Positions 4,692 through 64,000 of a DNA stretch of 64,000 bases are shown piece after piece. Source of the DNA: Psychrobacter sp. P2G3. GTDB lineage: Bacteria > Pseudomonadota > Gammaproteobacteria > Pseudomonadales > Moraxellaceae. The stretch lies in assembly GCF_001593285.1 (NCBI RefSeq), contig NZ_CP012529.1, forward strand, positions 1,612,001-1,676,000, in the 5' to 3' direction. The translations under genes were made by a program, and so were the position numbers. Position 1 is the stretch's first letter, and each line of letters begins with the position of its first letter. The notes under the pieces were generated by a model, which was not told where the DNA came from, searched no databases, and was given only the letters and a program-made list of their open reading frames with translations.

Positions 4692-5793
4692 TGATTCAAG
4701 ACCGAACAGTTCGATATCAAATATTGCGAAAGACATGATGGCTGACTGTCTAAACGGGCTCAAGGTTGTCGATCTCACGCGTAATCTCCCTGGTCCATTC
4801 GCGACGCGCTTACTCGCCGATCTTGGTGCAGAAATTATCAAGATTGAACCAGAGAATGGCGACCCAGGACGTGCGTTTGGTGAGTTGTTTAAGGCTTTAA
4901 ACCATGGCAAATATTGTGAAAAGGTGGGTTTTCGTAGTGAAGCAGGCATCGAAGCAATAAAAGCACACATCAAAGATGCGGACGTGATGCTTGATAGCTT
5001 TCGCCCTGAGGTCCTTGTTGGAATGGGTTTAGATGCCGCTACTTTACATGCTATCAATCCAAAACTGGTGATGGTTTCTATCACAGGCTATGGTATTCCA
5101 GAGGCGCTTGATGCATCAGCTAAAGCTTGGGCAGCAAAGGCTGGTCATGATATCAACTTTATGGCAATGAGCGGCACCCTTGATCAACTCAAAACAGCCT
5201 CAGGTGACCAAGCCATGCCCAATATGCAATTTGCAGATTTGGCTGGCGGTAGTGATACCGCAGTGATTGCCTTACTGGCAGCGGTATTTGCTGCTAAGAA
5301 TACAGGGCGAGGTCGACACATTGCCGTGAGTATGACGCACAGCTTGTATCATCATCTGGTCATGCCAAAAGCAACGGCTGATATGATGGAAAACATAAAT
5401 GGACAACGCCCAGAGCCACATCAGGACTTTTTAGGTGGCATGTTGCCATGCTATCGCTTGTATAAAACGCAAGACGGTCGCCATATGGCAGTCGGTTCAT
5501 TAGAGTTTAAGTTCTGGCGATTATTATGCGAGACCTTAGACTTATCTGAATACGTTGATGCTCATTGGCAGCGTGGATCAATGCCTAATACAGTTGAAAG
5601 TAAAAAAGCTGAGCAGGCAATGACAGAGAAATTTGCCAGTCAATCAATTGCGCATTGGCAAAAAGTATTCGCAGAGGTTGATGCTTGCGTAACCCCTGTA
5701 CTTAATCTAGCAGAAGCTCAAAGCCATCCTCTGTTTGCGCATCAAGATAAGCATCAAGCAATAGCAGCATGGCAGGTTATTGCTAGTGTATAG
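4684..5793 (+). CDS. Alpha-methylacyl-CoA racemase-like CoA-transferase family III protein
   Basis: Member of the CaiB/BaiF family, about 369 residues. It carries the opening LNGLKVVDLTRNLPGPFATRLLADLGAEIIKIE pattern of the family (cited only as a pattern, residues about 20-50), and a GHDINFMAMSG segment that matches the histidine-containing loop of alpha-methylacyl-CoA racemases better than that of CoA transferases. It is therefore more likely a racemase that lets 2-methyl-branched acyl-CoAs enter the upstream beta-oxidation enzymes. The chosen ATG overlaps the stop of the preceding gene. A pair of ATGs at 4735/4738 would start right before the conserved domain and remains possible. A terminator follows 48 bp after the stop, closing the operon. 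Confidence 0.8.
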   Translation: MTDDSRPNSSISNIAKDMMADCLNGLKVVDLTRNLPGPFATRLLADLGAEIIKIEPENGDPGRAFGELFKALNHGKYCEKVGFRSEAGIEAIKAHIKDADVMLDSFRPEVLVGMGLDAATLHAINPKLVMVSITGYGIPEALDASAKAWAAKAGHDINFMAMSGTLDQLKTASGDQAMPNMQFADLAGGSDTAVIALLAAVFAAKNTGRGRHIAVSMTHSLYHHLVMPKATADMMENINGQRPEPHQDFLGGMLPCYRLYKTQDGRHMAVGSLEFKFWRLLCETLDLSEYVDAHWQRGSMPNTVESKKAEQAMTEKFASQSIAHWQKVFAEVDACVTPVLNLAEAQSHPLFAHQDKHQAIAAWQVIASV

Positions 5794-5840
5794 ACTCAAT
5801 TAAACGTCATTTACATCCTGTAGCAAAGAGTTAACCATAA

Positions 5841-5865
5841 AAAGGCCCCGATAAGGGGCTTTTTC
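5841..5865 (+). terminator. Rho-independent terminator of the beta-oxidation operon
   Basis: AAAG-g-CCCC and GGGG-CTTT arms enclose a GATAA loop, with one bulged G, and run into TTTTT. It lies 48 bp after the racemase-like gene and matches the end of that operon. Confidence 0.8.
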
Positions 5866-6250
5866 GCATCTTTAATAAACTTTTATGTCATCTCTTTAAT
5901 TTCTAGTAAGCACAATTAGCTCTTGATAGTCCAAATATAAATAGTGTTATTTAAACTTTCAGAATATCTCTGTTTTTTTCCGTATAGTCTTATATTTATA
6001 ACAATATATCTATGGGTATTAGCTGTACTTATACATAGTATTATTTTATATCGTTTGACTGCAATTATGTAGCGCCATATATTGAATGACTGCCGGAGAT
6101 GACTGGTCTAAGAATAGATAGTTGATATTTTTTCAACTGTCTATTTATTTATCATTAGTATTTTTAATATAAAAACACCTATTAGCTGGTATTAATGGGC
6201 CGATAACTATTATTTATATAGAAATTATTTATAACAAGGGACTGTTTAGA
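5866..6250. other. AT-rich intergenic region with a hairpin
   Basis: No gene is seen in these 385 bp. The only clear structure is an inverted repeat at 6113-6145 (13-bp arms AATAGATAGTTGA and TCAACTGTCTATT, one G-T wobble, T-rich loop), followed by TATTTATC. It could be a second terminator or part of the leader of the deacetylase gene. AAGGGA lies 10 bases before the next start codon. Confidence 0.4.
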
Positions 6251-50111: not shown

Positions 50112-51152
50112 TCAATAATTGACGTTAATGCTTACGATGTCGGAGTAGTTATCAGGTTTAAAATCGGCACTGGGGACAGTAACATAGACAGTCTTTAGTT
50201 GAGAGGTTCCATCGCCAGTACCTACTACGCCGTTCCCTACGTTATTCGAGGTAGCGGTGTTTCCCCATATATTTCCACTTGCACCATCAGTTGAATGCAG
50301 TTGATAAGGTATCTTATCGGTATTGCTGCCAGTACCGCTCATGACACCAGCACCATCTATACTGTTATTGGAGGGCATCAAGCCAATATTATAGGGTGCA
50401 CCATTTGTACAGGTCACGCCAATCGCGCTAGAATTATTGCCCATGATATTGTTTCTATTTGCAGAATGAGAACCTAAATTGACATCAGTGGTAGAGGTAA
50501 CTGAGCAGCTTGGAATTACGGTCGCTTGAACGGTAAATGGGAATCGAATACTATTCTGACTTTCCGTCGCGCAATTGGATGAGTTTAAGTCTTCATCGGC
50601 TTTATATGTCAATGCGGTATGGTTGCTATTAAAGTTATTGGTATAAGTGCCTGGTGTAGCAAGAGCGTTATTTGCGAGTAAAGATACATCGATAAAAACA
50701 CTTCCTCTGATAGTAGATTCGGTACCTGCGAGGCCTGGTCTTCTTGGCATGATAAGCGGTCCCGTATTGTATTCTGAACCATCATTCCGTGCGCCCCAAG
50801 GCTTATTATCTATTGTCATGGCGAATGCTAAGGAGGAGTTAGTGTCAGACTTATTCCTCATGTACCGAGGGTTAGTGATAATGGGAATATAATCGCCATC
50901 ACCAACTGCAAGGCAAACTGACACATAGCCGTCCCTGAAACCTCCGTTGGTACAGGTATAGTCCAATCTAGTAGTAATCGTGGCATTATTAATATTAGCG
51001 AGAGTAATCTTATCACCAATGTTTACAAGGCTTGGAGTCATACTTGCTGTGCACTCAGTACGAAGTAAAGATCCGGCCCATACATGATCCATAGGTAACC
51101 ACCATGCACCTACTATCAAAAATAGGCTATATTTCCATCTTAACAATTTCAT
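50112..51152 (-). CDS. csuE: Csu-type pilus tip adhesin (spore-coat-U domains)
   Basis: Secreted protein of 346 residues with a signal peptide of about 26 residues (ending VWAG). Two SCPU-type domains follow: an N-terminal one with a Cys pair (TECTAS and YTCTNGG; CLAVGDG) and a C-terminal one starting at PSCSVTSTTDVNLG and ending in DIVSINVNY. Two-domain SCPU proteins form the tip of archaic chaperone-usher pili, as CsuE does in Acinetobacter. The start overlaps the usher stop (TAATG). It is the last gene of the operon and shows the usual length for CsuE. Confidence 0.85.
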   Translation of the reverse strand: MKLLRWKYSLFLIVGAWWLPMDHVWAGSLLRTECTASMTPSLVNIGDKITLANINNATITTRLDYTCTNGGFRDGYVSVCLAVGDGDYIPIITNPRYMRNKSDTNSSLAFAMTIDNKPWGARNDGSEYNTGPLIMPRRPGLAGTESTIRGSVFIDVSLLANNALATPGTYTNNFNSNHTALTYKADEDLNSSNCATESQNSIRFPFTVQATVIPSCSVTSTTDVNLGSHSANRNNIMGNNSSAIGVTCTNGAPYNIGLMPSNNSIDGAGVMSGTGSNTDKIPYQLHSTDGASGNIWGNTATSNNVGNGVVGTGDGTSQLKTVYVTVPSADFKPDNYSDIVSINVNY

Positions 51153-53626
51153 TATTCTTCTACCTTTTGACAGATGAGAGGACCGATTAGTGGAATATCG
51201 TCGCCCTGTTTATAATAAACAAAACTGACCGTACAACTATCCTTAGAGGGCATGATTACTTTTAGTACATTGTGCTCATCTAAGGTATCCAAATAGACTT
51301 CGCCATCAAATCCAATAACTGCTGAAGGTGCATTTTTGTTCGTAAGTAACTGTACTTGACTGCCTAACGGTAGTGGCTGGTTATCGCTGTCTGTGAGGAT
51401 AACAGAGGCAGAGCGCACCGGTGTGATGCCAAAGCTTACTAATACTCCTGCGCGGTCAGTCGGTGTGGCTTCAATATTCACCTTGTCAATACGCAGGTCA
51501 GCAGGCAAATCCATGGGGTCAATCGCAATCTTATTGTCTTGGTAAGCGTTCAATGGCGTCACCAATAACAGCCCCCGCTTATTTGTTGTACCAATGGGAC
51601 TGTTTTGCAGCAGTACTGGTACATCAGCGATACCATCAGTGGAGACCACGGCAAAACCATTATTGATTTGGCGGGCGGCAAATAAGCCTCCGCCCATCAT
51701 TACCAGCGCGCCTGTACCACTGGCATAAGTAGAGTAGCTATCGTTGTTACTACTGATACCAGCCTGTAATCGACCGTATGGACCAAGATAATTCAATTCG
51801 GCTAGGCCATCGGTACTGCTGTTATTAACCGTACTGTTATTACCTGTACTGTGCCTTGCTTGTGCGCGCCAGCCTATGCCGCCCACACCTGGTGTTGATT
51901 GCGACACATCTGTTACCAAGTCATGACGATCGTTGGTGCTCTGCAGACTACTGTTCAGCGAGATATTACGGTCTAAGGATAGCGAGGCGCCAAAAGAGAC
52001 ACTATTATTATCAGAGTTATGGATATCATGATTGTAATTGGCGTTCAGGCTCAGGCGTCGCCCAAAGGATTTTCGCCAAGAGGCGCTGGCAAACTGTGAG
52101 GTCTCTTGCTGCGCAAAAGCGATCTGGTTATAACTGAGACCAAAACTGCCTAGAGATTGGGTGTTATAACCTGTTGAGAGTTGTTCACTTCGGCGGTTGG
52201 GAGCATCCCCGTAGCGTGTGGCGACGTCACGGTAGTCACCTTGAGTACCGGTAGCATTGAGACCAATATGGAAGCGACTGTTATTCCAAGAGTAATTTGC
52301 ACTGTATTGCGAGCCACTTTCACCTTGGCTGTCGCTACCCGCTAGTGAGGCAAATAAGACGCCGCCTTTACTGCCCAATAACCAAGTGCCACCGACACCC
52401 GCATTACTAAGACCGTCAGTCACTTCAGCATGGGTTTCGGCGGTAAAGCGATCACTGACCCCATAGCGCCAAGTGCCAAAGCCAGCAATATCGCTGCCGT
52501 AATCAAAAGATTTGAGCCCATAGTTTTGGCGTACGGCACCAAGCTCTACTGACCAATCAGACAGCCCTGGCTGTAGTAAACGATGGGCATCATAAAGTGA
52601 GAAATTAAGCGTGGTGTTTTGTCCTAACGCATCAGTCAAGACGAGCTGGGCATTGCCCGCACCGCTAAAGCTGGGCGCTGTATGCAGCTCAAAAGGACCG
52701 GCGGGTACGTCACCGCTGTATTGCTTGAGACCATTAATATACAGCTCGACCGCTGAGGGCAGGGTGGCAGAACCAAAAAACGACGGCAAAGGCGTGGTGG
52801 TCATATAGGGCTGCAGGTCAAAATTAGTGCCAAATTGCAGTCCGCCTAAGCGCGTCGACCTGGTCCATGACAGTGCCCCTGTGAGGATGTCGCCAGCGCT
52901 GACGGTGAGCAGCTTATCAGGGAATGATTTGCTCCAACTGCTATCCAAACGCACCGTGCGGCTGTCCCAATCATTGCGATTAGTATCGCTACCGGCAAAG
53001 CGATTGCCAGTCGTCAGGGCAGTAGAGCTTAATACACCGAGGTCATTAAACGCGCGCAGTTCTGTATAAGCACTTAGGCTGGTCGCGTTGTTTTCGGTTT
53101 GGGTACCATAGAGGTTGTAATTTAACAGAAAACCAGGCGAGGCGGTCGGTTGTGGACGCCTGCTATTGCGGGTATTAACGACGGTGGTGGCAAGGTTGAG
53201 CATGTTTAGCGGTGCAATGAGGTTGAGCGTTTGCTGACGTGCATCATAATCAATCTTGATATCGGGTAGGGTGTTTAGCGGTATTGGTTCGAAGTTGTCA
53301 GGCGGCACTATAAAGCCGAGTTGCTGCAATACGTTGGTACTGGCCCATAATTGCTCATTATAGTATTCGAAGGACGCTAAGCCCTTATCAGCGCCGTTAA
53401 GCTTAACCTCCAAATAGAGATCAAGCTTGTCTGTATGGTCATTTTCGTCACGATTATCACGGTCTAAATCAAGCTGTGCGAGACTGTCGTTGGGAAGGTC
53501 TGTAGAGGTAGCTATGATATCGTTTGGTTCGATAGCATGGCTGATAGGTATCATTAAGGTTTGCAATAAGGCTATTTTAGCGATCGGAAGTGTCCAGCGT
53601 AACGTCTTGTATCGTCTCAGTTCCAT
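51152..53626 (-). CDS. csuD: Csu-type outer-membrane usher
   Basis: Fimbrial usher of 824 residues. A signal peptide precedes the periplasmic N-terminal domain (YLEVKLNGADKGLASFEYYN, about residues 50-70, pattern). The 24-strand pore includes the plug-region motif GALSWTRSTRLGGLQFGTNFDLQPY and FFGSATLPSAVELYINGL, and C-terminal domains follow near residue 700. It exports and assembles subunits delivered by the CsuC-like chaperone. The start overlaps the chaperone gene by 50 bp; a later ATG (MIPISHAIE) would truncate the signal peptide, so the long form is preferred. Confidence 0.9.
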   Translation of the reverse strand: MELRRYKTLRWTLPIAKIALLQTLMIPISHAIEPNDIIATSTDLPNDSLAQLDLDRDNRDENDHTDKLDLYLEVKLNGADKGLASFEYYNEQLWASTNVLQQLGFIVPPDNFEPIPLNTLPDIKIDYDARQQTLNLIAPLNMLNLATTVVNTRNSRRPQPTASPGFLLNYNLYGTQTENNATSLSAYTELRAFNDLGVLSSTALTTGNRFAGSDTNRNDWDSRTVRLDSSWSKSFPDKLLTVSAGDILTGALSWTRSTRLGGLQFGTNFDLQPYMTTTPLPSFFGSATLPSAVELYINGLKQYSGDVPAGPFELHTAPSFSGAGNAQLVLTDALGQNTTLNFSLYDAHRLLQPGLSDWSVELGAVRQNYGLKSFDYGSDIAGFGTWRYGVSDRFTAETHAEVTDGLSNAGVGGTWLLGSKGGVLFASLAGSDSQGESGSQYSANYSWNNSRFHIGLNATGTQGDYRDVATRYGDAPNRRSEQLSTGYNTQSLGSFGLSYNQIAFAQQETSQFASASWRKSFGRRLSLNANYNHDIHNSDNNSVSFGASLSLDRNISLNSSLQSTNDRHDLVTDVSQSTPGVGGIGWRAQARHSTGNNSTVNNSSTDGLAELNYLGPYGRLQAGISSNNDSYSTYASGTGALVMMGGGLFAARQINNGFAVVSTDGIADVPVLLQNSPIGTTNKRGLLLVTPLNAYQDNKIAIDPMDLPADLRIDKVNIEATPTDRAGVLVSFGITPVRSASVILTDSDNQPLPLGSQVQLLTNKNAPSAVIGFDGEVYLDTLDEHNVLKVIMPSKDSCTVSFVYYKQGDDIPLIGPLICQKVEE

Positions 53627-54338
53627 TGATCATTGCCTTGAATTTACCACCTGTCGTTAGTGCTGAGGGCGGTGTTTTCAGTGTCCAGTACATGGTAGCG
53701 CCTGGTAAAACATAACCCAGCAAACCTTTATGGACATCAATGCTAGTACCAGTCGTATCTACAAAGCTTAGGCTTGCCAGTTGGGCATGACCATTACCGC
53801 TATTGTGGACCCGTAACTTTATCTGCTTACCCTCTGGCTGCACGTGCGTGCTCCATTGCAGTTTTGGGGCGGTCTTGACAACACCAACAGGCTGTACAAA
53901 TACGGGTAGGGAATAGCTCAATGCAAACTGTAAGCCACTTTTTTGGTCAGGGGATTTAATCGGTAACTCATTAACCAAAACTCGGTAGCTATCTTCTACA
54001 GCGCCACTGCCGTGCGGCGGTGCTTTGGCACGGATAATTCGAATTAATTGCTTGTCGTTAGGGTTGAGCTCAATCATTGGCGGACTGGCCAATAATCCTC
54101 GTGATAGTGTGAGCTGATCGCCTGTTTCATCCTGCGACCAGTGGTACACACGCACTTGCGCATGCACCACATTGTCACCGGTATTACTTAGGGTCAGACC
54201 ACTGGCATTTTCTCGAGCTTGTATGCTTAAGGAGATGGGAGAGACCTGTAGGCCACTCGCCATCGCCCAATTGCTACACAGTAGAAAGCTTGAGATCACA
54301 CTATATTTTGCAACACGGTGTAACCAGAGATTTAACAT
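53577..54338 (-). CDS. csuC: Csu-type periplasmic pilus chaperone
   Basis: Chaperone of 253 residues. The signal peptide ends near AMASG, and two immunoglobulin-like domains follow. The first has LQVSPISLSIQARENASGLTL and the motif NDKQLIRIIRAKAP, whose basic residues anchor subunit C termini. The second starts near PKLQWSTH. The long F1-G1 loop and overall layout fit the archaic (sigma) chaperone-usher class. It lies 5 bp after the major subunit and overlaps the usher gene, so all four genes should be co-transcribed. Confidence 0.88.
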   Translation of the reverse strand: MLNLWLHRVAKYSVISSFLLCSNWAMASGLQVSPISLSIQARENASGLTLSNTGDNVVHAQVRVYHWSQDETGDQLTLSRGLLASPPMIELNPNDKQLIRIIRAKAPPHGSGAVEDSYRVLVNELPIKSPDQKSGLQFALSYSLPVFVQPVGVVKTAPKLQWSTHVQPEGKQIKLRVHNSGNGHAQLASLSFVDTTGTSIDVHKGLLGYVLPGATMYWTLKTPPSALTTGGKFKAMINGTETIQDVTLDTSDR

Positions 54339-55692: not shown

Positions 55693-56748
55693 TTATAGTG
55701 TTTTGACAGGTGTTGAAAAATAGTGCTCAATATCCGACTCAGTTAGATCTTCTAGTTCGCTCGGAGCCCATTTTGGAGAACCGTCTTTATCAACTAAAAC
55801 GGCACGAATACCTTCATAAAAGTCAGCTGTATCCATGAAGTGAATGGCCATGTCCTTTTCCATCTCAAGGCATTCGTTAAGCGATTTATATTTTCCATTT
55901 ATTAATTGCTGAAATGTAACTTTTAATGAGGTAGGCGACTTTGAAAGAATGTTATTTAATTCTTGTGTGACCCACTCATCACCATTAATTGACTCACTTC
56001 GTAAAGACGCTACTATTTCTTCTACTGTATCATATTGAAAATGTTGGTTTATTAATTCTTGATGTACCTTCAGTTCTGAAATATCTAATGCACTTGTACC
56101 GGTTGCGGTAAGTAATTCCCCTAGATCTTTAAGAACTGATGCAGATGACCAATCTTTAGTTAGTAATTTTTCTTGTATAGTTTCCCACTCACTGCTTTCC
56201 ATATAGTAATCAGCTGTACCAATATAGATAGCATCATTTGCTTTTATAACCTTTGCGGTCAATGCAAGATAACGACCTATATATCCCGGTAGTTGATTGA
56301 GAAAAAAGCTTGCTCCAACATCTGGAAAAAATCCAATGTTCATTTCAGGCATCGCCCATTTTGTTTTTTCTGTTACGATTCGGTGAGATGCTCCGACGGA
56401 AAGTCCGACTCCACCTCCCATAACAATGCCATTCATATAGGCCAAAATAGGTTTTGAATAGTTATGTATAAGTGCATCTAGGCGGTATTCTGTTGAAAAG
56501 AACTTCTCTGCATAAGGTATGACATCTTCAGCTTCCAAATCATAGAATTTTCGCATGTCTCCTCCTGCACAAAATCCTTTTTGACCCTCACCGTACAAAC
56601 AAACAAACACTACGTTAGAGTCTTTTTCCCATTTTTCTAAAGCATTCGTTAACAGTTCAACTACTTCAGTATTAATAGCGTTTAGGACTTCAGGTCGATT
56701 TATTTTTAGCCAGCCAATACCGTTTTTTACTTCTGACGTAACAACCAT
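55693..56748 (-). CDS. 3-hydroxyisobutyryl-CoA hydrolase-like protein (candidate 3-hydroxypropionyl-CoA hydrolase)
   Basis: Crotonase-superfamily hydrolase of 351 residues, the usual length of the HIBYL-CoA hydrolase group. Signatures are FCAGGDMRKFYD near residue 60, NGIVMGGGVGLSVGASHRI, and the catalytic-loop MPEMNIGFFPDVGASFFL with the conserved Glu and Asp. The C-terminal half has the helical extension (SKSPTSLKVTFQ) typical of these hydrolases and lacking in hydratases. AGGAG lies 10 bases before the ATG. In this cluster it could release 3-hydroxypropionate from 3-hydroxypropionyl-CoA made from acryloyl-CoA, an activity known for the family. A role in valine catabolism is the alternative, but no other valine genes are near. 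Confidence 0.85.
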   Translation of the reverse strand: MVVTSEVKNGIGWLKINRPEVLNAINTEVVELLTNALEKWEKDSNVVFVCLYGEGQKGFCAGGDMRKFYDLEAEDVIPYAEKFFSTEYRLDALIHNYSKPILAYMNGIVMGGGVGLSVGASHRIVTEKTKWAMPEMNIGFFPDVGASFFLNQLPGYIGRYLALTAKVIKANDAIYIGTADYYMESSEWETIQEKLLTKDWSSASVLKDLGELLTATGTSALDISELKVHQELINQHFQYDTVEEIVASLRSESINGDEWVTQELNNILSKSPTSLKVTFQQLINGKYKSLNECLEMEKDMAIHFMDTADFYEGIRAVLVDKDGSPKWAPSELEDLTESDIEHYFSTPVKTL

Positions 56749-56899
56749 TGATACGAACTCCTAAATTTTGTAATTTAAAATTATATAAGTTTATGGGTTT
56801 TTTATAAAAATATGAGTGATTGCGGTTAACTATCATAAATAACAGCTTGATAGTAAGTTCCAAAAAATAAATTTAATAAAATTATCAGAGGATAGTATA

Positions 56900-56945
56900 A
56901 GCATGAATATAGTCGTTTAATAAAAAATATGACTATATTCATGCT
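56900..56945. repeat. Perfect 15-bp inverted repeat between two crotonase genes
   Basis: AGCATGAATATAGTC and GACTATATTCATGCT flank a 16-nt A/T loop. It lies 25 bp after the stop of the upstream crotonase gene. No T-run follows, so it could be a terminator without a U-tract, an RNA stability hairpin or an operator. Confidence 0.55.
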
Positions 56946-56970
56946 GTTCTCATGTATTATGCTATGAAAG

Positions 56971-57762
56971 TTAATCTTTAAAAGTAGGTTTGCGTTTTTC
57001 CATAAAAGCATTAACGCCTTCGATCATGTTTTCTGTCTTAAATAATTGAGCCCATTGTTCTGATTCTATTTCTAAACCTTTTTCTAAGGTTGTTGCCATA
57101 CCTTCATTAACAGCTGTAATAGTTGCTTTGATAGATTCTGAGCTTTTATTGAGAGCAATTGATTCAGCCAGTTTTTTCGTTTCATCCATTAATTCTGAAA
57201 GTGGCACTGATTTATTAACGAGACCTATTTTTTCTGCCTCTTCTCCACTTAAAAATTGTCCAGTTAGTATGAGTTCTAATGCTTTTGCTTTATTTGTTAT
57301 ACGCGGAAGTCTTTGAGTCCCGCCGAACCCAGGTATCAAACCTAAATTTAACTCTGGTTGACCCAATTTAGCTTCATTGGCTGCAATCCGTAAATGACAG
57401 CTCATGGCAAGCTCTAACCCTCCACCTAAACAAGCGCCATTAATTGATGCAATAACGAGTTTTTTAGAAGACTCAATTGTATTCATAACGGCTTGTGCAT
57501 CTTGGGATAACTTCTTTCCTTTTTCTTCATCATGAAAAGCGTCAGTAAACTCTTTTATATCTGCCCCAGCAACGAACATTTTCCCTTTACCGGTTATAAC
57601 AATTACCTTGATACTTTGATCTGCTTCCACATAGTTAAAACACTCAGATAATCCGTTGATTGTTGTAGTACTTAATGTATTAGCAGGCGGGCTATCAATA
57701 GTTATGTAGCCAATTCCGTTTTCTGTACTTAAATTTATGTTAGAAAATTCTTTAGTTTCCAT
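56971..57762 (-). CDS. Enoyl-CoA hydratase (candidate acryloyl-CoA hydratase, AcuH-like)
   Basis: Crotonase of 263 residues. The oxyanion segments are FVAGADIKEFTD and CLGGGLELAMSCHLR, and both catalytic glutamates are present, in GGGLELA and in GQPELNLGLIPGFGGTQR. The ending is NAFMEKRKPTFKD. It is therefore a competent hydratase. In a DMSP-cleavage cluster it would hydrate acryloyl-CoA to 3-hydroxypropionyl-CoA, as AcuH does. I start at the ATG of METKEFSN, which has a GGAG about 11 bases upstream; an in-frame ATG at 57819 would add 19 residues. It is transcribed leftward away from the TetR gene. Confidence 0.85.
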   Translation of the reverse strand: METKEFSNINLSTENGIGYITIDSPPANTLSTTTINGLSECFNYVEADQSIKVIVITGKGKMFVAGADIKEFTDAFHDEEKGKKLSQDAQAVMNTIESSKKLVIASINGACLGGGLELAMSCHLRIAANEAKLGQPELNLGLIPGFGGTQRLPRITNKAKALELILTGQFLSGEEAEKIGLVNKSVPLSELMDETKKLAESIALNKSSESIKATITAVNEGMATTLEKGLEIESEQWAQLFKTENMIEGVNAFMEKRKPTFKD

Positions 57763-58353
57763 TGCTCTTTCTACTCCGTTCAGATTATTTTTAATAGCGT
57801 GTCTATTGACAAGTATCAATTATGAATATAACTCAAATTATCGTATCTTAATAAAATTAAAGCTTTAGCTAAATTAGATATTCTAATTACTGTAATTAAA
57901 ATATTTGTTTACAGTATGAGTGTAATGTCTTTAGTTCTCAGCGTCAATAAAAATCTGACCGGATAGAATAATTTTTTCGTTTGTCATGATATACGAGTTG
58001 CAGAAATGATGTTTTTCATCATGTGGTAGCTGATTTAGCTAAGATGTATGGTGTAAGATACGATGATATTGATAATTCAACGAAATAGCTGAAATACCTA
58101 TGGAAGTTACTGATATTTTTATACTTTTAAGAAAGGAGTAGATACTTTCCATATAGTATTAGTCGGTTTCCATCCAATCTTTCATTACTAATTAACGTGT
58201 TTTAATGCTATGATTTTAAGAAGGATTGAATGGTTTCGATAGCATAGTGACCGTTCAAAGAGGACCTTTTTAGCATTTTACTTAACTATCTTGCTTTCAG
58301 TGAGAAATAGTAAGCAGCTATTAAGCAATATTTTGGAGTGGAACAACTGGTAG
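57763..58353. other. Divergent control region between the hydratase and TetR genes
   Basis: No intact gene is seen in about 590 bp. Two imperfect dyads are candidate operators: TACTGTAA with TTTACAGTA at 57888-57916, and TTGAATGGT with ACCGTTCAA at 58226-58258 (15-bp spacer, one mismatch). The second lies about 100 bp upstream of the TetR start. A non-functional reading frame with an undisrupted run of about 30 codons ends at 58088. Confidence 0.4.
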
Positions 58354-58362
58354 GTGGATTTA

Positions 58363-58959
58363 GTGACTAAGAGAGCAGAAGAAAGAAGAAAACAGGTGTT
58401 ACGTGCAACACTTAGAGCAATCAATGATAAAGGGTTTAGCGAAGTTACGCTTCAAGATATTGCAGATTACACTGACTTTAGTAAAGGTGTTATCAGCTAT
58501 TATTTCAAAAACAAGGAAGATGTCTTCTATCATTTACTTGAATGGATGACCGATCGCATTTTCCAAAATGAGTATGTCGCTATCCAAAAAGAAACGACGG
58601 CTATCGATATGATGCGCGCGTATGTTGATACTGTGTTTAAGAGTCCTAAAGATAACAAAATATTTTATAGTGTTTATCTCGAATTTTTGGCTCAAACGAA
58701 AAAAAATGAGAGCTTTCGTGAAGTGAACAATAACTTCTATAAGAATTGTTGGTTCTTAGGTAGTGAAATTATTGAAAAAGGAAAATCAGAAGGGATTTTT
58801 AAAAATGTAGATACGGTAGCTGGAAGCCATATGATTCGTGCTTTGATTGATGGTTGTCTTTTACAGTGGTTGATGCGCGATGACGAAACGCTGCACGCTT
58901 ATTACCGTGAAACTTGTTATGAGACGATTATTACTTATCTAAACCATAAAGCTCCCTAG
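58363..58959 (+). CDS. TetR-family regulator, BetI-like
   Basis: Regulator of about 198 residues. The N-terminal helix-turn-helix has GFSEVTLQDIADYTDFSKGVISYYFKNKEDV (pattern, about residues 22-52) in the layout of BetI and related TetR proteins. The C-terminal ligand domain contains the ALIDGCLLQWLM segment near 168, also BetI-like. BetI senses choline, a quaternary ammonium compound, so a sulfonium or betaine ligand is plausible. The GTG at 58363 is preceded by AGGTGG at 6 bases and is my choice; GTG 58354 would add three residues. It is the only regulator in the DMSP-type cluster. Confidence 0.85.
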   Translation: MTKRAEERRKQVLRATLRAINDKGFSEVTLQDIADYTDFSKGVISYYFKNKEDVFYHLLEWMTDRIFQNEYVAIQKETTAIDMMRAYVDTVFKSPKDNKIFYSVYLEFLAQTKKNESFREVNNNFYKNCWFLGSEIIEKGKSEGIFKNVDTVAGSHMIRALIDGCLLQWLMRDDETLHAYYRETCYETIITYLNHKAP

Positions 58960-59105
58960 AAGATATAATTTCTCCTTTTTAACAATTTTTTCTACTCAAT
59001 GTAAATTTCAATCGTAAAGAATCCACTAAGATTTTGTGAACTAATCGCTCTCCTATATGTTTATCCAAATGGTTCGATAGGGGTCAGTTGTTATGCGACC
59101 TAGAC

Positions 59106-59140
59106 GTAAAAGATAACAGTTATTACCTGTTATCTTTTAC
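59106..59140. terminator. Bidirectional terminator between the TetR and crotonase genes
   Basis: GTAAAAGATAACAG and CTGTTATCTTTTAC form a perfect 14-bp stem with a 7-nt loop. The A/T arms give U-runs in both directions. The two genes converge here. Confidence 0.8.
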
Positions 59141-59180
59141 ATATAAAACTACCTATTATTATATTTTGGTCGTTAGATAC

Positions 59181-59990
59181 TTATTTCCCTTTTAAAAAAG
59201 CGCTTAATCCTTCTTCACGAATGATTCGTCCTGCCTCTGCAAACTCTTGTTCCTGACTTAAGAAAAACATAGAAATCGCCGTTTCAATATTATAGTCAAG
59301 TGACTGTTTCAAGTTCATCATCTCGTACGTTTTATTGATTGTCATCTTTGTTATTTTAAGTGCTGAAGCAGGCACACTGACCATTTTTTCAGCCATCTTT
59401 ATCGCTTCTTCCATCAATTGCTCTTGTGGCACCACTTTATTAAAAATACCTAGACGATAAGCTTCTTCTGCATCAACAGAATCACCGGTATAAAGCAGTT
59501 CTTTCGCTTTTCTCAAACCTACAATCCACGGCATCATCAAGGTGGCTGGAGCAGCACCAAAGCGGATCTCTGGTTCCCCAATACTTGCTTTATCAGATGC
59601 GATAGCAAGATCGGCAGAAAACACCCAATCTGCTGCTACGCCATAAGCGTAACCATCCACTGCTGCAATTACGGGTTTTTTTAGATCCCATAATTTTAAT
59701 CCTACCCGTAAAAAGGTTTCTAATTGTGCACGGTATACTTCTGATGGCTCATCGCCAATGGGGGAAGGCAGATCCATAGACTCTTTTAAATCTGCACCTG
59801 CAGAGAAATTCCCCCCAGATCCTGTAAGTATCACTACTCTTACATTTGAGTCCTTTTCAGCTTGATCCAATGCTTCCCATATATCTGCGGTCATTTGTTC
59901 TGTTACTGCATTTAATTTTTTGGGACGATTGAGAGAAATCGTAGCAATATTATTAGTAACTTCATATATAACTGTCTGATATTCTTGCAT
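59181..59990 (-). CDS. Crotonase-family protein with atypical oxyanion segment
   Basis: Crotonase-superfamily protein of 269 residues. The first oxyanion segment is normal (FSAGADLKESMD), but the second reads AYGVAADWVFSADL where hydratases have GGG-x-EL, so the glycine run and the first catalytic glutamate are missing. The second glutamate is kept in GEPEIRFG. It may be an isomerase, a hydrolase or an enzyme acting on a charged acyl-CoA, and resembles CaiD-type proteins in context only. I start at the second ATG because AAGGA is 8 bases upstream of it; the ATG at 59999 is too close. It lies 39 bp after the BCCT gene, which is upstream in the same operon. Confidence 0.8.
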   Translation of the reverse strand: MQEYQTVIYEVTNNIATISLNRPKKLNAVTEQMTADIWEALDQAEKDSNVRVVILTGSGGNFSAGADLKESMDLPSPIGDEPSEVYRAQLETFLRVGLKLWDLKKPVIAAVDGYAYGVAADWVFSADLAIASDKASIGEPEIRFGAAPATLMMPWIVGLRKAKELLYTGDSVDAEEAYRLGIFNKVVPQEQLMEEAIKMAEKMVSVPASALKITKMTINKTYEMMNLKQSLDYNIETAISMFFLSQEQEFAEAGRIIREEGLSAFLKGK

Positions 59991-60029
59991 ATTTTCCATC
60001 CTTTCAAAACTTGAGTGTAGTATTAATTG

Positions 60030-61640
60030 CTATAGCTCATATACTTCTTCTTTAATCTCAACAGCTGTTTTTTGCTTTTCTTTGTGCAAACTCATACTAG
60101 CTAAGTCAATAGGCCCTTCTTGCCATTGAGGATCGAGATGTGCTTCTGTTTTTAACATCTTCATTAATGAGATGACCAGTAATAGGATTACGAATATAAA
60201 AGGTATCGCTGTCAATATTGAAGCTGTTTGTAAAGTCTTCAAATCCCCACCTAAGACCATTAAAGTGCCAGGCAAGATAAATAAGGTTAATGCCCAAAAT
60301 AGTCTATTCCATTTAGCAGGCTCTTCATTAATACCAATATTTGGTGTTGTTGCTGAAGCCATCATGTAAGCTGCTGAGTCAAAGGTAGTGGCTAAGAATA
60401 TTAAGGCGATGAAACTAAATACAGCGACTACTAAGGTCCCAAAGGGAAGGGTGCCAATGACTTGAATAATGGTTGCAGGGGCACCGACTTCTTCTAGTAA
60501 TCCAGTAACTGACAATACATTAGTTAATTCCAAATGCATTGCATAATTTCCTAATATTGAAAAATAAGCGGTGCAACCTAACGTACCCCAAGCTACTCCT
60601 CCTAAAATTACTTGCCTAATAGTTCTTCCTCTAGAGATTTTAGCAATGAATAAGCCCATGAATGGCGTATAAACAATCCACCATGCCCAGTAGAAGACAG
60701 TCCAACTTTCTACAAATCCTGAACCACTTACTGGGTCTGTATATGTATTCCAGCGCACGAAATTACTGAATAACATGCCAATACTATTGGTGCCCATTTT
60801 TAAAATAAACTCGCTTGGCCCGACCAATAAAATGTAGCTCAAAAGTATAATAGAGCAGATAATTGCTAAATCGCTTAACAATTTTAGACCGCGTTTTAGG
60901 CCCGAGTAGGCACTCCATGTAAATAAAGCGGTACATAGTACGAGTACAAATATGGTCATTGACATTGAAGCTTCTATTCCTGTTAGGCTGCTTAGTCCCG
61001 CTGCTACTAGCGGTGTACCAAGTCCCAAGGAAGTACCTGCAGCTCCCAAGATCCCAAACATAAATATAACATCAATCGCTTTTCCTAGTGCTCCGTCTGC
61101 ATGTTTTCCTATCACAATACGGCAAATCTCACTTAATCTCAAAATAGGTACTTTTAAAATATAATAGGAGTAAGCAATAGGTATAGCGGGTAAGACAAAG
61201 AATCCCCAAGCTGAGGGACCCCAGTGAAAAATACCATATGCGGCCGCTATTTCAGCAGCTGCTATCGATTTTGGTTCAATTCCGTAAGGTGGCGCCATAT
61301 AATAATAAGCCCACTCAATTGTTCCCCAGTAAACCAATCCTGAAGCCACACCCGCACAAAAAACCATGGCACCCCAACTGAAGTTTGAAAACTCAGGCTT
61401 TTCATCTTTGGTGCCGAATTTAATTTTTCCATGTTTACTAAAAAATAGATAGATTAAAAAGGCGAATCCTCCGGTCCCAGCCCACAAAAACATCATTCCA
61501 AAGTTTGAAGTCACAAATCCATTTGCTTGACTGACAATCTCACTACCTCTTTCTGGATATAGAACCAAAGGAAGACAGATAGCCACAATCAAAACAAATG
61601 TGGATACGAATATGAACCAATCAATTTTATTCTCTTTCAA
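60030..61640 (-). CDS. BCCT-family transporter (candidate DMSP/betaine importer)
   Basis: Transporter of 536 residues with 12 helices. The aromatic substrate box is seen as YWGTIEWAYYY, and the family signature as FYWAWWIVYTPFMGLFIAKISRGR (pattern, about residues 325-348). BCCT proteins import quaternary ammonium or sulfonium zwitterions such as betaine, carnitine and DMSP. The start codon is TTG with a strong AGGAG seven bases upstream. It lies directly downstream of the DddX-type gene (97 bp) and upstream of a crotonase gene, so it is most likely the DMSP importer of the cluster. A carnitine or crotonobetaine substrate is the main alternative. Confidence 0.88.
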   Translation of the reverse strand: MKENKIDWFIFVSTFVLIVAICLPLVLYPERGSEIVSQANGFVTSNFGMMFLWAGTGGFAFLIYLFFSKHGKIKFGTKDEKPEFSNFSWGAMVFCAGVASGLVYWGTIEWAYYYMAPPYGIEPKSIAAAEIAAAYGIFHWGPSAWGFFVLPAIPIAYSYYILKVPILRLSEICRIVIGKHADGALGKAIDVIFMFGILGAAGTSLGLGTPLVAAGLSSLTGIEASMSMTIFVLVLCTALFTWSAYSGLKRGLKLLSDLAIICSIILLSYILLVGPSEFILKMGTNSIGMLFSNFVRWNTYTDPVSGSGFVESWTVFYWAWWIVYTPFMGLFIAKISRGRTIRQVILGGVAWGTLGCTAYFSILGNYAMHLELTNVLSVTGLLEEVGAPATIIQVIGTLPFGTLVVAVFSFIALIFLATTFDSAAYMMASATTPNIGINEEPAKWNRLFWALTLFILPGTLMVLGGDLKTLQTASILTAIPFIFVILLLVISLMKMLKTEAHLDPQWQEGPIDLASMSLHKEKQKTAVEIKEEVYEL

Positions 61641-61737
61641 TTTAATACTCCTTCCTTAGAGTTAAATATCCTATGTGTCTTTTACCTTTTATCAGTGAAA
61701 CGAACTAATTAGCAGGCTATAGACGGTGTACAAATAG

Positions 61738-63867
61738 TTAGTTCACTAGCTCAGCATATTTTTTAACAGATGGATTCTCAACATTGATATTTTTTGCTGA
61801 TGCAAGTACATCTAGGGCAACAACACCTTCAACGCGTACAGATAAAGGGTTTATCTCGAACTCGACAATTTCCTCATAGTTTTCCATCGCAGTCTTACCC
61901 ATCTGTACAATAGAACCAGTGAGTGCTTCTAAATCTAGTGGTGTACTACCTCTAAAACCTTGTACACTTTTCCAAAGCATAGGTATACTTCGAACCATTT
62001 GCTCAGCTTTCTTATGGGAGATAGGTGGTACTGCTAAAACAACTTCATTGAACAGTTCGGTATAAATACCTCCTAAGCCAAATATAACTACTGGACCATA
62101 GTTTACGTCTGTTCTGTAAGCAAGAATGGTTTCAAAACCATCTGTGACCATCTCTTGAATCAGATAAAACGGAGAGTTAAGGTGCTCCATTTTTGCCCAA
62201 GCTTTCTTCAATTTCGCGTCATTTTTAATATTTAATGCAACGCCTCCCACATCGGTTTTATGAGCCAATCCTTGTGCTTTTAGAACGATTGGATACCCAA
62301 TCTCATTTGCATATTCAATCCCTTCTTGAAGAGACATCACTACTTTCTCTCTTGGAGATAAGAATCCATTTTTTTCTAATAATTCTCGCCCTTCATCATC
62401 ATGAAGAAGATATAGCTCTTGAAGGGCTGAAGACTCTTCTACCGGATATATTGGTGTATGATTCGTTTTTTCTAAAAAATCTTTGTACTGAAACATTGCT
62501 CGACAAGCAACCAGTGCGTTGCGACTACCTTGTATGACAGGAATGCCAGCATCTTCTAAGATAGACAGAACTCTAGGATCAAACTCTGTTTGAATATGGC
62601 TAAAATATAAAAATGGTTTGTTAGAGTTTTCTCTTAATGCAGCAAGATCCTTAGCAGGTGTACTGGTGAAATCGAATTCATGGTTACCTTGGCCAATTGG
62701 TGCATCTATTGCTACGGTTACAATCCCAATATTAGTATCGTTTACTAAAGTGGATAGACAAACATTTGATACTTCAGAAAAATCTTTACTACTCTTATCC
62801 CAAATATCTAAAGGATTAGATATTTCACCTAATTCAGTAAACTCACTCTTTAGCTTTTGATTGGTAGCATCTGAAAAATCAGGAAAATCAACACTATAGT
62901 CTTCAGCTAAATCGAGCAATATTCCTGCTTGTCCTCCTGATACCGTTACTGCAGATACTGTGTTTTGAGTGGGTAGGTATGGATATGATAATAATTGCGC
63001 TACTGCTACTGCTTGATCAATATCTTCCACAAAAAGCACACCATGTTCTTCGAGAACAAGTTTCTCAATCACATAGTCTCCAGCTAATGCTCCTGAGTGT
63101 GCATTAGCAGCCGCTGCTGATTTTACGGTTCTGCCAACTTTAATCGCAACAACAGGCTTTTTGTTGACGCCACATAAGTCCAATGCTTCTAAAAAACCTT
63201 TGTAATTGCGTATCGCTTCTATATATAAAATAATGACAGAGGTGTCAGTATCTTCCGCTAGTAAACTCAAATAATCATGCATTTGAACATCTGCTTCATT
63301 ACCTGTTGAATAAATCTTGCTGATTCCAAGTTTAGAGGCAATAAAGGCGTCGTTGACTGAACCGCTTTGAGAGATAATAGAAACAGGTCCTTTTTTTATG
63401 GGACGCAGCGGTCTATGTAAAGTACCAATGTATGGGGTGAACTGATTATGCATGTTAAAATAACCCATACAATTGGGTCCAACTATTCGCATGCCTGAAC
63501 TTGAAGCATGTTCAAGAATAGCTTTCTGTATTTTTTGCCCCTCTAAGCCGCTTTCCCCATAGCCACCTCCAGGAATTACCAGAGCTTTAGCATTTATTTG
63601 GCTAGCGTTACTAGCGACTTGAATCATTAGTTTCGGATTGACAAGTCCGATCACCACATCAATCGACTCTCCAATATCTAAAAGAGTTGGGTAGCATTTT
63701 GTCCCATCAATATCTTCATATCTTGGATTTACCAGATAAACGCTTCCTTTGAATCCCATCTGGCTTAAGTTTTCTAAAAGTACACGTGTTGCAAAGCGAT
63801 GATTAGCGCCAACTATAGCTACAGTGTGAGCTTCATTAGTTAATATCTGCAGATTGTCCTTTTTCAT
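61738..63867 (-). CDS. dddX: ADP-forming acyl-CoA synthetase, probable ATP-dependent DMSP lyase DddX
   Basis: Acyl-CoA synthetase of the NDP-forming superfamily, 709 residues. It has a CoA-binding domain (about 12-130), two succinyl-CoA-ligase-like domains (about 155-460) and a C-terminal ATP-grasp (about 480-700). The phospho-histidine is H257 in NAHSGALAGD. In the DddX enzyme of Psychrobacter sp. D2 I recall the key residues Tyr181, Asp208, His292, Trp391, Glu432 and Phe435. With a constant offset of 35 these fall here on Y146, D173, H257, W356, E397 and F400, all identical. DddX converts DMSP, ATP and CoA to dimethyl sulfide and acryloyl-CoA. An in-frame TAA upstream supports the ATG start, so the offset may reflect a longer D2 N terminus. 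Neighbouring BCCT and crotonase genes agree. Confidence 0.82.
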   Translation of the reverse strand: MKKDNLQILTNEAHTVAIVGANHRFATRVLLENLSQMGFKGSVYLVNPRYEDIDGTKCYPTLLDIGESIDVVIGLVNPKLMIQVASNASQINAKALVIPGGGYGESGLEGQKIQKAILEHASSSGMRIVGPNCMGYFNMHNQFTPYIGTLHRPLRPIKKGPVSIISQSGSVNDAFIASKLGISKIYSTGNEADVQMHDYLSLLAEDTDTSVIILYIEAIRNYKGFLEALDLCGVNKKPVVAIKVGRTVKSAAAANAHSGALAGDYVIEKLVLEEHGVLFVEDIDQAVAVAQLLSYPYLPTQNTVSAVTVSGGQAGILLDLAEDYSVDFPDFSDATNQKLKSEFTELGEISNPLDIWDKSSKDFSEVSNVCLSTLVNDTNIGIVTVAIDAPIGQGNHEFDFTSTPAKDLAALRENSNKPFLYFSHIQTEFDPRVLSILEDAGIPVIQGSRNALVACRAMFQYKDFLEKTNHTPIYPVEESSALQELYLLHDDEGRELLEKNGFLSPREKVVMSLQEGIEYANEIGYPIVLKAQGLAHKTDVGGVALNIKNDAKLKKAWAKMEHLNSPFYLIQEMVTDGFETILAYRTDVNYGPVVIFGLGGIYTELFNEVVLAVPPISHKKAEQMVRSIPMLWKSVQGFRGSTPLDLEALTGSIVQMGKTAMENYEEIVEFEINPLSVRVEGVVALDVLASAKNINVENPSVKKYAELVN

Positions 63868-64000
63868 GCATATACCTCTCTCAATAATTACTTAAAAACA
63901 GCTTATTTTTTACTAAAATTATCAGTATCAGAATAGCCTATATTTTCATCGTATACTTAATTATCTGACCAGTCAATATAAAAAAATATTAGCAAGGATT
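63868..64000 (-). promoter_or_regulatory. Upstream region of dddX with a short palindrome
   Basis: TGAC-CA-GTCA, a 10-bp palindrome at 63966-63975, lies about 100 bp before the start codon. GAGAGAGG precedes the ATG by about 7 bases. The region is cut by the window edge, so further promoter elements cannot be judged. Confidence 0.35.

What the first reader, a model, noticed from the sequence alone, without database searches (positions are those of the whole stretch)
55693..63867. Predicted DMSP-cleavage locus built on a DddX-type lyase
The 709-residue ADP-forming acyl-CoA synthetase keeps six residues that I recall as functionally important in DddX of Psychrobacter sp. D2 (Tyr181, Asp208, His292, Trp391, Glu432, Phe435) at a constant offset of 35: Y146, D173, H257, W356, E397, F400. 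A BCCT transporter, a BetI-like TetR regulator and three crotonases flank it. This fits uptake of DMSP, release of dimethyl sulfide and processing of acryloyl-CoA. The cited residue numbers come from memory; the sequence positions here were counted.
Basis: partly seen in the sequence, partly recalled or inferred. Interest (0 to 1): 0.92.

Follow-up and report, generated by a model that had tools for sequence, protein, structure and literature searches.

The report
DMSP-cleaving gene cluster of mixed origin

Summary
The 709-aa protein is an ortholog of DddX of Psychrobacter sp. D2 (7CM9; 1275 bits; offset 35 at all six residues) and the BCCT gene of D2 DddT. The system is known. The six-residue clue was weaker than it looked: His occurs in 103 of 103 non-DddX homologs and Trp in 95; Glu397 with Phe400 in 1. 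Missed: dddC and dddB just past the window end, completing dddBCXT. New here: (1) dddX-dddT-crot3, tetR, ech2 and a hydrolase are syntenic with Sporosarcina and Psychrobacillus loci (68-91% identity); two of three trees clearly nest Psychrobacter inside Bacillota. (2) In the 10 of 105 genus genomes with a DddD-type gene, dddD-BCCT follows iclR|dddB-dddC, where dddX-dddT stands here. (3) TTGACTGGTCA, overlapping the -35 box, precedes dddX in 6 of 7 dddX loci and is absent from 74 control loci. (4) ech2 and the hydrolase fit the open steps from acryloyl-CoA to 3-hydroxypropionate; the third crotonase has Asp for a catalytic Glu and may be a DMSP-CoA lyase. TetR binding, these enzyme roles and the direction of transfer are inferred, not tested.

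The parts
61738..63867 (-). dddX: ATP- and CoA-dependent DMSP lyase (ADP-forming acyl-CoA synthetase family), 709 aa
   Evidence: 7CM9 match 1275 bits over the whole length; DddX clade 100/100
60030..61640 (-). dddT: BCCT-family DMSP importer, 536 aa, TTG start
   Evidence: DddT (21ff) 1037 bits, ungapped 1-526; 12 of 12 listed residues kept
59181..59999 (-). crot3: crotonase with Asp124 in place of the first catalytic Glu, Glu144 kept; modified acryloyl-CoA hydratase or DMSP-CoA C-S lyase
   Evidence: 91% identical to the Sporosarcina BP05 copy; D124 and W125 in 37 of 37 clade rows; in 84 other homologs E in 75 and D in 9
58354..58959 (+). tetR: TetR-family regulator, 201 aa, nearest to BetI models; proposed repressor of dddX-dddT-crot3
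   Evidence: BetI models 72 and 67 bits, below cut-offs; 82% to the syntenic Sporosarcina gene
56971..57819 (-). ech2: enoyl-CoA hydratase, proposed acryloyl-CoA hydratase; ORF 282 aa, homology starts near residue 24, so the true start may be an internal ATG (codon 20)
   Evidence: best solved relative is 3-hydroxypropionyl-CoA dehydratase 5zai, 232 bits; E136 and E156 at the two glutamate positions
55693..56748 (-). HIBCH-like hydrolase, 351 aa, proposed 3-hydroxypropionyl-CoA hydrolase
   Evidence: NCBIfam 3-hydroxyisobutyryl-CoA hydrolase 419 bits, cut-off 274; 3bpt 243 bits, MPE and FPD motifs aligned (E135, D143)
63965..63976 (-). operator-like palindrome, TTGACTGGTCAG on the coding strand, overlapping the -35 box of dddX
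   Evidence: TTGACTGGTCA before dddX in 6 of 7 dddX loci
63948..63976 (-). sigma-70-type promoter of dddX: TTGACT, 17 bp, TACGAT
   Evidence: read by eye; similar layout (17-18 bp) in the five Bacillota loci, the -10 of L095 being poor; coordinates
57919..57947 (-). promoter of ech2: TTGACG, 17 bp, TACACT
   Evidence: read by eye; same layout in L003, L004 and L095; coordinates
57955..57966 (-). weaker operator-like site CTATCCGGTCAG just upstream of the ech2 -35 box
   Evidence: CTGTCYGGTCAA at the same place in L003, L004 and L095; coordinates

Best explanation
This is a complete DMSP cleavage and assimilation locus of the DddX type. DddT brings DMSP in with sodium. DddX uses ATP and CoA to make DMSP-CoA and then DMS plus acryloyl-CoA. 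Ech2 (and perhaps crot3) adds water to acryloyl-CoA to give 3-hydroxypropionyl-CoA. The HIBCH-like hydrolase frees 3-hydroxypropionate. DddB and DddC, encoded just past the window end, oxidise it through malonate semialdehyde to acetyl-CoA. The TetR protein represses dddX-dddT-crot3 by binding a palindrome over the -35 box until a pathway metabolite releases it. The block from dddX to the hydrolase is an import from Sporosarcina-like Bacillota, joined to the genus's own iclR|dddB-dddC in the place where other members keep dddD and a BCCT gene. Shown here: gene identity, synteny, residue conservation, trees, operator sharing. Shown in the literature for orthologs: DddX and DddT activity. Inferred: the roles of ech2, hydrolase and crot3 in this pathway, the DddB and DddC steps, TetR binding, and the order of gene gain and loss. 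The confidence given is for a DMSP cleavage locus; for the ech2-hydrolase route I would say 0.6, for TetR at the palindrome 0.65, for import from Bacillota 0.85.
For: Matches to 7CM9 and DddT. D2 genetics, enzymology and tested orthologs in PMC8163506. dddC (MMSDH family, 665 bits, cut-off 448.5) and dddB (iron-containing alcohol dehydrogenase) at L002 3210-5950, in the D2 order. Synteny with L003, L004, L095, and in part L007 and L096. In L003, L004, L007 and L095 dddB and dddC of another type (40-49%) sit between ech2 and the hydrolase, and an AcuI-family acrylyl-CoA reductase is beside tetR in L003 and L095. HIBCH tree nests the genus inside Sporosarcina and Psychrobacillus rows (98/93, 95/98); the crot3 tree puts the window's 5-row group in a 10-row group with Sporosarcina (96/93). 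Genus census: dddB in 20 of 105 genomes, DddD type in 10, DddX in 1, both in 0; the hydrolase in 4. Nucleotide similarity to the ten DddD loci stops at the dddC stop codon or within 11 bases of it. GC of the six imported genes 35.6-39.7%, dddC and dddB 43.5 and 42.7%. Operator counts.
Against: No trees were made for dddT, ech2 and tetR. GC3 does not set the imported genes apart (24-34% against 32% for dddC and dddB). The window's palindrome is imperfect (last base G, not A). A one-mismatch search of the window for TTGACYRGTCAA gives 2 hits and 9 of 100 shuffles reach that, so the site counts only through position and conservation; a genome-wide search used a pattern that ends in A or T and so could not find the window's own site (0 hits, 1 for the reversed control). 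Recombinant D2 DddC and DddB had no activity on acryloyl-CoA (compatible with a need for ech2 and hydrolase). D2 does not grow on acrylate. ech2-HIBCH also occur beside dddB-dddC in two genomes with no DddD or DddX found (L121, L122), so the pair is not tied to DddX.
Confidence: 0.93

Rival explanations
1. crot3 is a dedicated DMSP-CoA C-S lyase: in the cell DddX mainly makes DMSP-CoA, and crot3 takes the alpha proton with Glu144 and expels dimethyl sulfide, leaving acryloyl-CoA for ech2.
For: One crotonase is surplus once hydratase and hydrolase are assigned. crot3 was not seen in the fetched stretches (6.8-19.9 kb) of the 19 other dddB loci of the genus, ten of them with DddD, is present in the six main dddX loci, and is the best conserved of the shared proteins between window and Sporosarcina BP05 (91% against 77% for DddX). 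D124 and W125 are invariant in 37 of 37. In Variovorax paradoxus a cluster with three crotonases (a hydrolase, Ech-30, Ech-20) is proposed to do 3HP-CoA hydrolysis, acrylyl-CoA hydration and C-S elimination, and Ech-20 is stabilised by the CoA ester (PMC6370202 passages). DMSP-CoA is seen as an intermediate of DddX.
Against: Purified DddX alone makes DMS and acryloyl-CoA. The crot3 clade also occurs in L093 and L094 beside AcuI and a CoA ligase without DddX or a BCCT gene, so its role is not tied to sulfonium compounds. The DddX of L006 has no crot3 in the 5 kb held downstream.
Confidence: 0.25
2. crot3 is a second acryloyl-CoA hydratase (AcuH-like), kept because acryloyl-CoA is toxic.
For: PMC8163506 lists 1695, next to dddT, among AcuH and AcuI homologs of D2 (that 1695 is the crot3 ortholog is my inference from gene order). 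L093 and L094 pair crot3 with AcuI.
Against: The first of two glutamates essential in AcuH (Glu112, Glu132; PMC5651017) is Asp in the whole clade, while ech2 beside it keeps both.
Confidence: 0.5
3. The locus serves carnitine or another betaine, not DMSP.
For: BCCT, BetI-type regulators and crotonases are also found in carnitine and betaine pathways (recalled).
Against: DddX and DddT match proteins tested with DMSP far better than any other solved protein; none of the nine genes from iclR to the hydrolase is of CaiA or CaiB type.
Confidence: 0.03
4. Psychrobacter is the donor and Bacillota the recipients.
For: The DddX test against it is only borderline (p 0.044).
Against: Nested position in the HIBCH and crot3 trees, rarity in genus (1 of 105) and family (1 of 348; 4 of 261 in the order of Sporosarcina), lower GC.
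Confidence: 0.1

Closest known systems
dddBCXT operon of Psychrobacter sp. D2 (PMC8163506, PMC13270143)
   Same: Same four genes in the same order; DddX 80% identical, DddT aligned without a gap over 526 residues; D2 also has AcuH or AcuI homologs numbered 1692 and 1695 beside the operon
   Different: The parts of the papers that I saw do not describe the HIBCH-like hydrolase, the TetR gene, the operator or the Bacillota synteny; the D2 genome itself was not held
DddX cluster of Sporosarcina and Psychrobacillus (L003, L004, L095)
   Same: dddX-dddT-crot3, tetR, ech2 and HIBCH in the same relative order, 68-91% identity; promoter and palindrome before dddX
   Different: Their dddB and dddC are a 40-49% type placed between ech2 and HIBCH; AcuI lies inside the cluster in L003 and L095
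dddBCD-BCCT clusters of other Psychrobacter (L117-L120, L123-L127, L135)
   Same: Divergent iclR and dddB-dddC at 85-95% protein identity
   Different: DddD type (two CoA-transferase III domains) and another BCCT (29-32%) instead of DddX and its DddT; no crot3 or tetR seen
Thiodipropionate cluster of Variovorax paradoxus TBEA6 (PMC6370202)
   Same: Three crotonases with proposed C-S elimination, acrylyl-CoA hydration and 3HP-CoA hydrolysis
   Different: Other substrate and CoA-activating enzyme; sequences not compared here

Membership tests
DddX DMSP lyase | Homology above the authors' filter (over 30% identity, over 70% coverage) | tested here: met
   80% identity to D2 DddX over the full length; filter
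DddX DMSP lyase | His292, Trp391, Glu432 (plus Tyr181, Asp208, Phe435) | tested here: met
   all six present; Glu and Phe are the discriminating pair
DddX DMSP lyase | Groups with tested DddX away from other ADP-forming ligases | tested here: met
   18-row clade 100/100 that holds P0006, the DMSP lyase chain of 748 aa
[quoted passage not shown]
   needs an assay; shown for orthologs in PMC8163506
DddT DMSP transporter (D2 type) | A99, G101, W105, Y112, W140, S204, W313, F316, Y317, W320, W321, Y324 | tested here: met
   12 of 12 identical; list from PMC13270143 passages
dddBCXT operon | dddB and dddC upstream of dddX on the same strand | tested here: met
   L002 3210-4700 (MMSDH family) and 4760-5950 (iron-containing ADH); a shared transcript was not tested
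AcuH acryloyl-CoA hydratase (ech2) | Two catalytic glutamates | tested here: met
   E136 and E156
AcuH acryloyl-CoA hydratase (crot3) | Two catalytic glutamates | tested here: not met
   D124 in place of the first, 37 of 37 clade rows
3-hydroxyisobutyryl-CoA hydrolase family | Family model over its curated cut-off, active-site Glu and Asp | tested here: met
   419 bits against 274; MPE and FPD motifs aligned with 3bpt; that these are catalytic is recalled
BetI repressor | BetI model over its curated cut-off | tested here: not met
   72 bits against 201; 67 against 118

The most novel reading that the evidence does not exclude
The DddX pathway is in truth a ligase plus a separate C-S lyase. DddX chiefly charges DMSP with CoA, and the crot3 crotonase, with its Asp-Trp signature, is the enzyme that releases dimethyl sulfide in the cell. 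The set crot3, ech2 and hydrolase is a portable kit for beta-sulfur-substituted propionyl-CoA, moved between phyla and slotted into a host operon in place of DddD.
Probability: 0.2. Interest if true: 0.75.

Novelty: new member of a known kind. Interest (0 to 1): 0.45.

Why it matters
[quoted passage not shown] How DddX bacteria handle the toxic acryloyl-CoA was left open by the DddX authors, and a later paper still draws steps of that pathway as unconfirmed. This locus names candidate genes for every step and a candidate regulator with a binding site. It also suggests a lyase swap: one DMSP lyase standing where relatives keep an unrelated one, with parts brought across phyla. That gives a natural comparison of DddD and DddX within one genus.

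Tried and rejected
A remnant of the lost Bacillota dddB-dddC in the 222 bp between ech2 and the hydrolase: none found by eye or blastn against the loci. Plasmid carriage of DddX: 27 plasmid records matched, all below 60% identity, the 10 listed at 31% or less. tRNA genes as an insertion point: none in the window. Perfect inverted repeats in the tetR-ech2 gap as operator: found, but not the same between loci. The six-residue match as proof: reduced to two informative residues. A tree test of Bacillota against Psychrobacter without outgroup was uninformative and was redone with one. One Variovorax genome was searched with crot3; the best of 20 hits had 38% identity or less, not followed. Structure prediction was not run, since structures of close orthologs exist. 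Other DMSP lyase families (cupin types, DddP, DddY, Alma) were not searched for in any genome, so 'no lyase' here means no DddD or DddX at the cut-offs used.

Literature: PMC8163506 - outline and abstract, Results (parts 1 and 2 of 3, and the distribution section), the homolog-method section, Discussion, and passages. PMC13270143, PMC5651017, PMC6370202, PMC10686828 - passages only. Others - search listings and abstract starts. That the TetR gene, operator, hydrolase and mosaic are not in print rests on five searches of open-licence papers; 55 papers hold a word beginning dddx, many of them unrelated, 40 were listed, and I opened four of those; supplements and the D2 genome were not seen.

Rows dropped: P0016 (partial) and P0001 (near-copy of the window) from the residue counts. 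Homolog lists show the best 120 of 804, of 221 and of 4281. The HIBCH tree used 27 of 120 plus five window or locus rows; the crot3 tree 42 of 120 plus the window; the DddX tree 16 DddX-clade proteins, the window, the L007 protein and 6 of the others. The genome scan kept 79 loci of 234 confirmed stretches. L132 was cut by its contig (6.8 kb). In the 74 control loci (3.1-22.1 kb) ech2 also finds some relative in 63, dddC in 34, HIBCH in 4 and iclR in 1.
Full report
What is there. The finding covers six genes, all confirmed. On the minus strand, in order of transcription, are dddX (63867-61738), dddT (61640-60030) and crot3 (59999-59181), then, beyond tetR on the plus strand (58354-58959), ech2 (57819-56971) and a HIBCH-like hydrolase (56748-55693). 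The window stops 133 bases upstream of the dddX start. The genome continues with dddC and dddB on the same strand and a divergent iclR (L002 3210-4700, 4760-5950, 6191-6961). dddC scores 665 bits with the methylmalonate-semialdehyde dehydrogenase model (cut-off 448.5), dddB is an iron-containing alcohol dehydrogenase, iclR an IclR regulator. The genus is Psychrobacter by inference: the hydrolase of the same-genus genome G054 equals P0244 in the tree, P0244 is named Psychrobacter sp. Cmf 22.2, and both lie on contigs of 640,377 bases.

Identity. DddX matches the solved DMSP lyase of Psychrobacter sp. D2 at 1275 bits with offset 35; the next solved relative scores 258 bits. It lies in a DddX clade of 18 rows, 100/100, and among homologs identity falls from 56% to 34% at the edge of that clade. 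The BCCT protein matches D2 DddT at 1037 bits without a gap, against 286 bits for the best carnitine-type transporter; 12 of 12 residues on the DMSP route are the same (list from PMC13270143). P0001, 8 differences in 709, probably is DddX of strain P11G5, which was tested active.

How good was the clue? Of the six residues, His and Trp are common in the wider family (103 and 95 of 103), Tyr and Asp partly so (47 and 18). Glu397 (19) and Phe400 (5) are the telling ones; together they occur in 1 of 103, and all six in 0 of 103.

Neighbours across phyla. In Sporosarcina sp. BP05 (L003) the same genes stand in the same relative order: dddX 77%, dddT 83%, crot3 91%, tetR 82%, ech2 80%, HIBCH 72%. 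Psychrobacillus soli (L004, 70-90%, HIBCH cut by the stretch) and L095 (68-86%) agree. Metabacillus (L007) has dddX, tetR, ech2, HIBCH and crot3 in another order, and its two BCCT proteins are only 31-33% like DddT. L096 (L005), of Sporosarcina P13, holds dddX-dddT-crot3 and then ends. In L003, L004, L007 and L095, dddB and dddC of another type (40-49%) sit between ech2 and HIBCH. In our genome they are absent there, leaving 222 bp without a recognisable remnant, and the genus-type dddB-dddC stand upstream of dddX instead. As control, in 74 loci of other ADP-forming ligases none has dddT, dddB or tetR at E 1e-15, though 54 have some crotonase that crot3 detects.

The lyase slot. Of 105 genus genomes, dddB occurs in 20, a DddD-type protein in 10, DddX in 1, our own; the ten are all among the 20 and none has both. 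DddD was assigned by length (835-837 aa), two CoA-transferase III stretches in the one protein scanned, 88-99% identity of the other nine to it and position; it was not compared with a tested DddD. All ten read iclR | dddB-dddC-dddD-BCCT. Similarity of our locus to them ends at the dddC stop or within 11 bases of it. In G054 the order continues with ech2 (82%) and HIBCH (91%); in G098 with ech2 (82%) and two abutting pieces of HIBCH. There dddD-BCCT fills the place that dddX-dddT-crot3-tetR fills here. G027 and G028 have dddB-dddC-ech2-HIBCH with neither lyase. The remaining seven dddB genomes have neither lyase. The hydrolase itself is in 4 of 105 at E 1e-80: our own, G027, G028, G054. In the family, DddX is in 1 of 348.

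Direction. The HIBCH tree puts all Psychrobacter rows inside a series of Sporosarcina and Psychrobacillus rows (98/93, 95/98). crot3 agrees (96/93). DddX alone is borderline (p-AU 0.044). GC is lower in the imported genes (35.6-39.7%) than in dddC and dddB (43.5, 42.7%), but GC3 is not distinctive. I read this as import from Bacillota, with loss of the imported dddB-dddC. Whether dddX replaced a dddD that stood there, or the reverse happened in G054 and G098, is not settled.

Regulation. Before dddX stands TTGACTGGTCAG, a palindrome with one flaw, whose first six bases are the -35 box, 17 bp before TACGAT. TTGACTGGTCA stands before dddX also in L003, L004, L005/L096, L007 and L095. The second dddX of Sporosarcina P13 (L006) lacks it, so 6 of 7 loci; L006 has TTGACCGGTCAA before a FabK-like gene instead. 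The 11-mer occurs in 6 of 6 of these regions, in 0 of 74 other ligase loci (1.52 Mb) and in 0 of 19 other dddB loci (0.36 Mb). Related sites lie before acuI in L003 and L095 and before a FabK-like gene in L003, and a weaker one before ech2 in the window and three Bacillota loci. I infer that the TetR gene's product binds it. No site with up to one mismatch precedes dddB, which probably keeps its native IclR control.

Pathway. DddX gives acryloyl-CoA. ech2 has both catalytic glutamates and its best solved relative is 3-hydroxypropionyl-CoA dehydratase. The hydrolase is a 3-hydroxyisobutyryl-CoA hydrolase family member; such enzymes also take 3-hydroxypropionyl-CoA (recalled). In G054 it stands beside a DddD-type gene, and DddD's product is 3-hydroxypropionyl-CoA (PMC8163506). 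DddB and DddC then finish to acetyl-CoA, as that paper proposes. The D2 authors listed AcuI and AcuH homologs, 1692 and 1695 among them, and said that the fate of acryloyl-CoA was open. The own genome also has an AcuI-family gene elsewhere (C1:24183-25157), as another exit.

The surplus crotonase. crot3 is with dddX in the six main loci and was not seen in the other dddB stretches of the genus. It has Asp for the first catalytic Glu, with a Trp next to it, in 37 of 37 close relatives; among 84 further homologs 9 have Asp. Either it is a modified hydratase or it removes dimethyl sulfide from DMSP-CoA. The Variovorax thiodipropionate cluster offers a parallel with three crotonases. Against: DddX alone suffices in vitro, and relatives of crot3 occur without DddX beside AcuI and a CoA ligase.

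Verdict. The mosaic, the shared operator and the three-crotonase assignment are the parts worth following.

Noticed in passing
L006 9995-16951: Sporosarcina sp. P13 has a second dddX (65% to the window's) followed by two type III CoA-transferase-like genes (one scanned) and a different BCCT, with no crot3, hydrolase or dddBC in the stretch: a DddX paralog in another setting.
   Followed up: partly
L093 4311-13997: A crot3 relative (64%) sits with an ADP-forming ligase (31% to DddX; by eye without the Trp, Glu and Phe), ech2- and HIBCH-like genes, AcuI and a sodium:solute symporter: perhaps a pathway for another beta-substituted propionate.
   Followed up: partly
L094 7197-12336: A crot3 relative (57%) beside AcuI, an AcsA-like ligase and an acyl-CoA dehydrogenase-type protein whose second-best model, far below cut-off, is 3-sulfinopropanoyl-CoA desulfinase.
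   Followed up: no
L121 and L122: Two same-genus genomes have dddB-dddC-ech2-hydrolase but no DddD or DddX found: possibly 3-hydroxypropionate users, decayed loci, or another lyase type elsewhere.
   Followed up: no
50112-54338: Pilus-type genes next to the locus: usher, PapD-like chaperone and a spore-coat-U-domain subunit; the usher gene has GC 48.9% against 40.9% for the window.
   Followed up: partly
L002 7318-9405: A HipA-family gene and a short integrase-core fragment (rve_2, 131 aa) lie just beyond iclR.
   Followed up: partly
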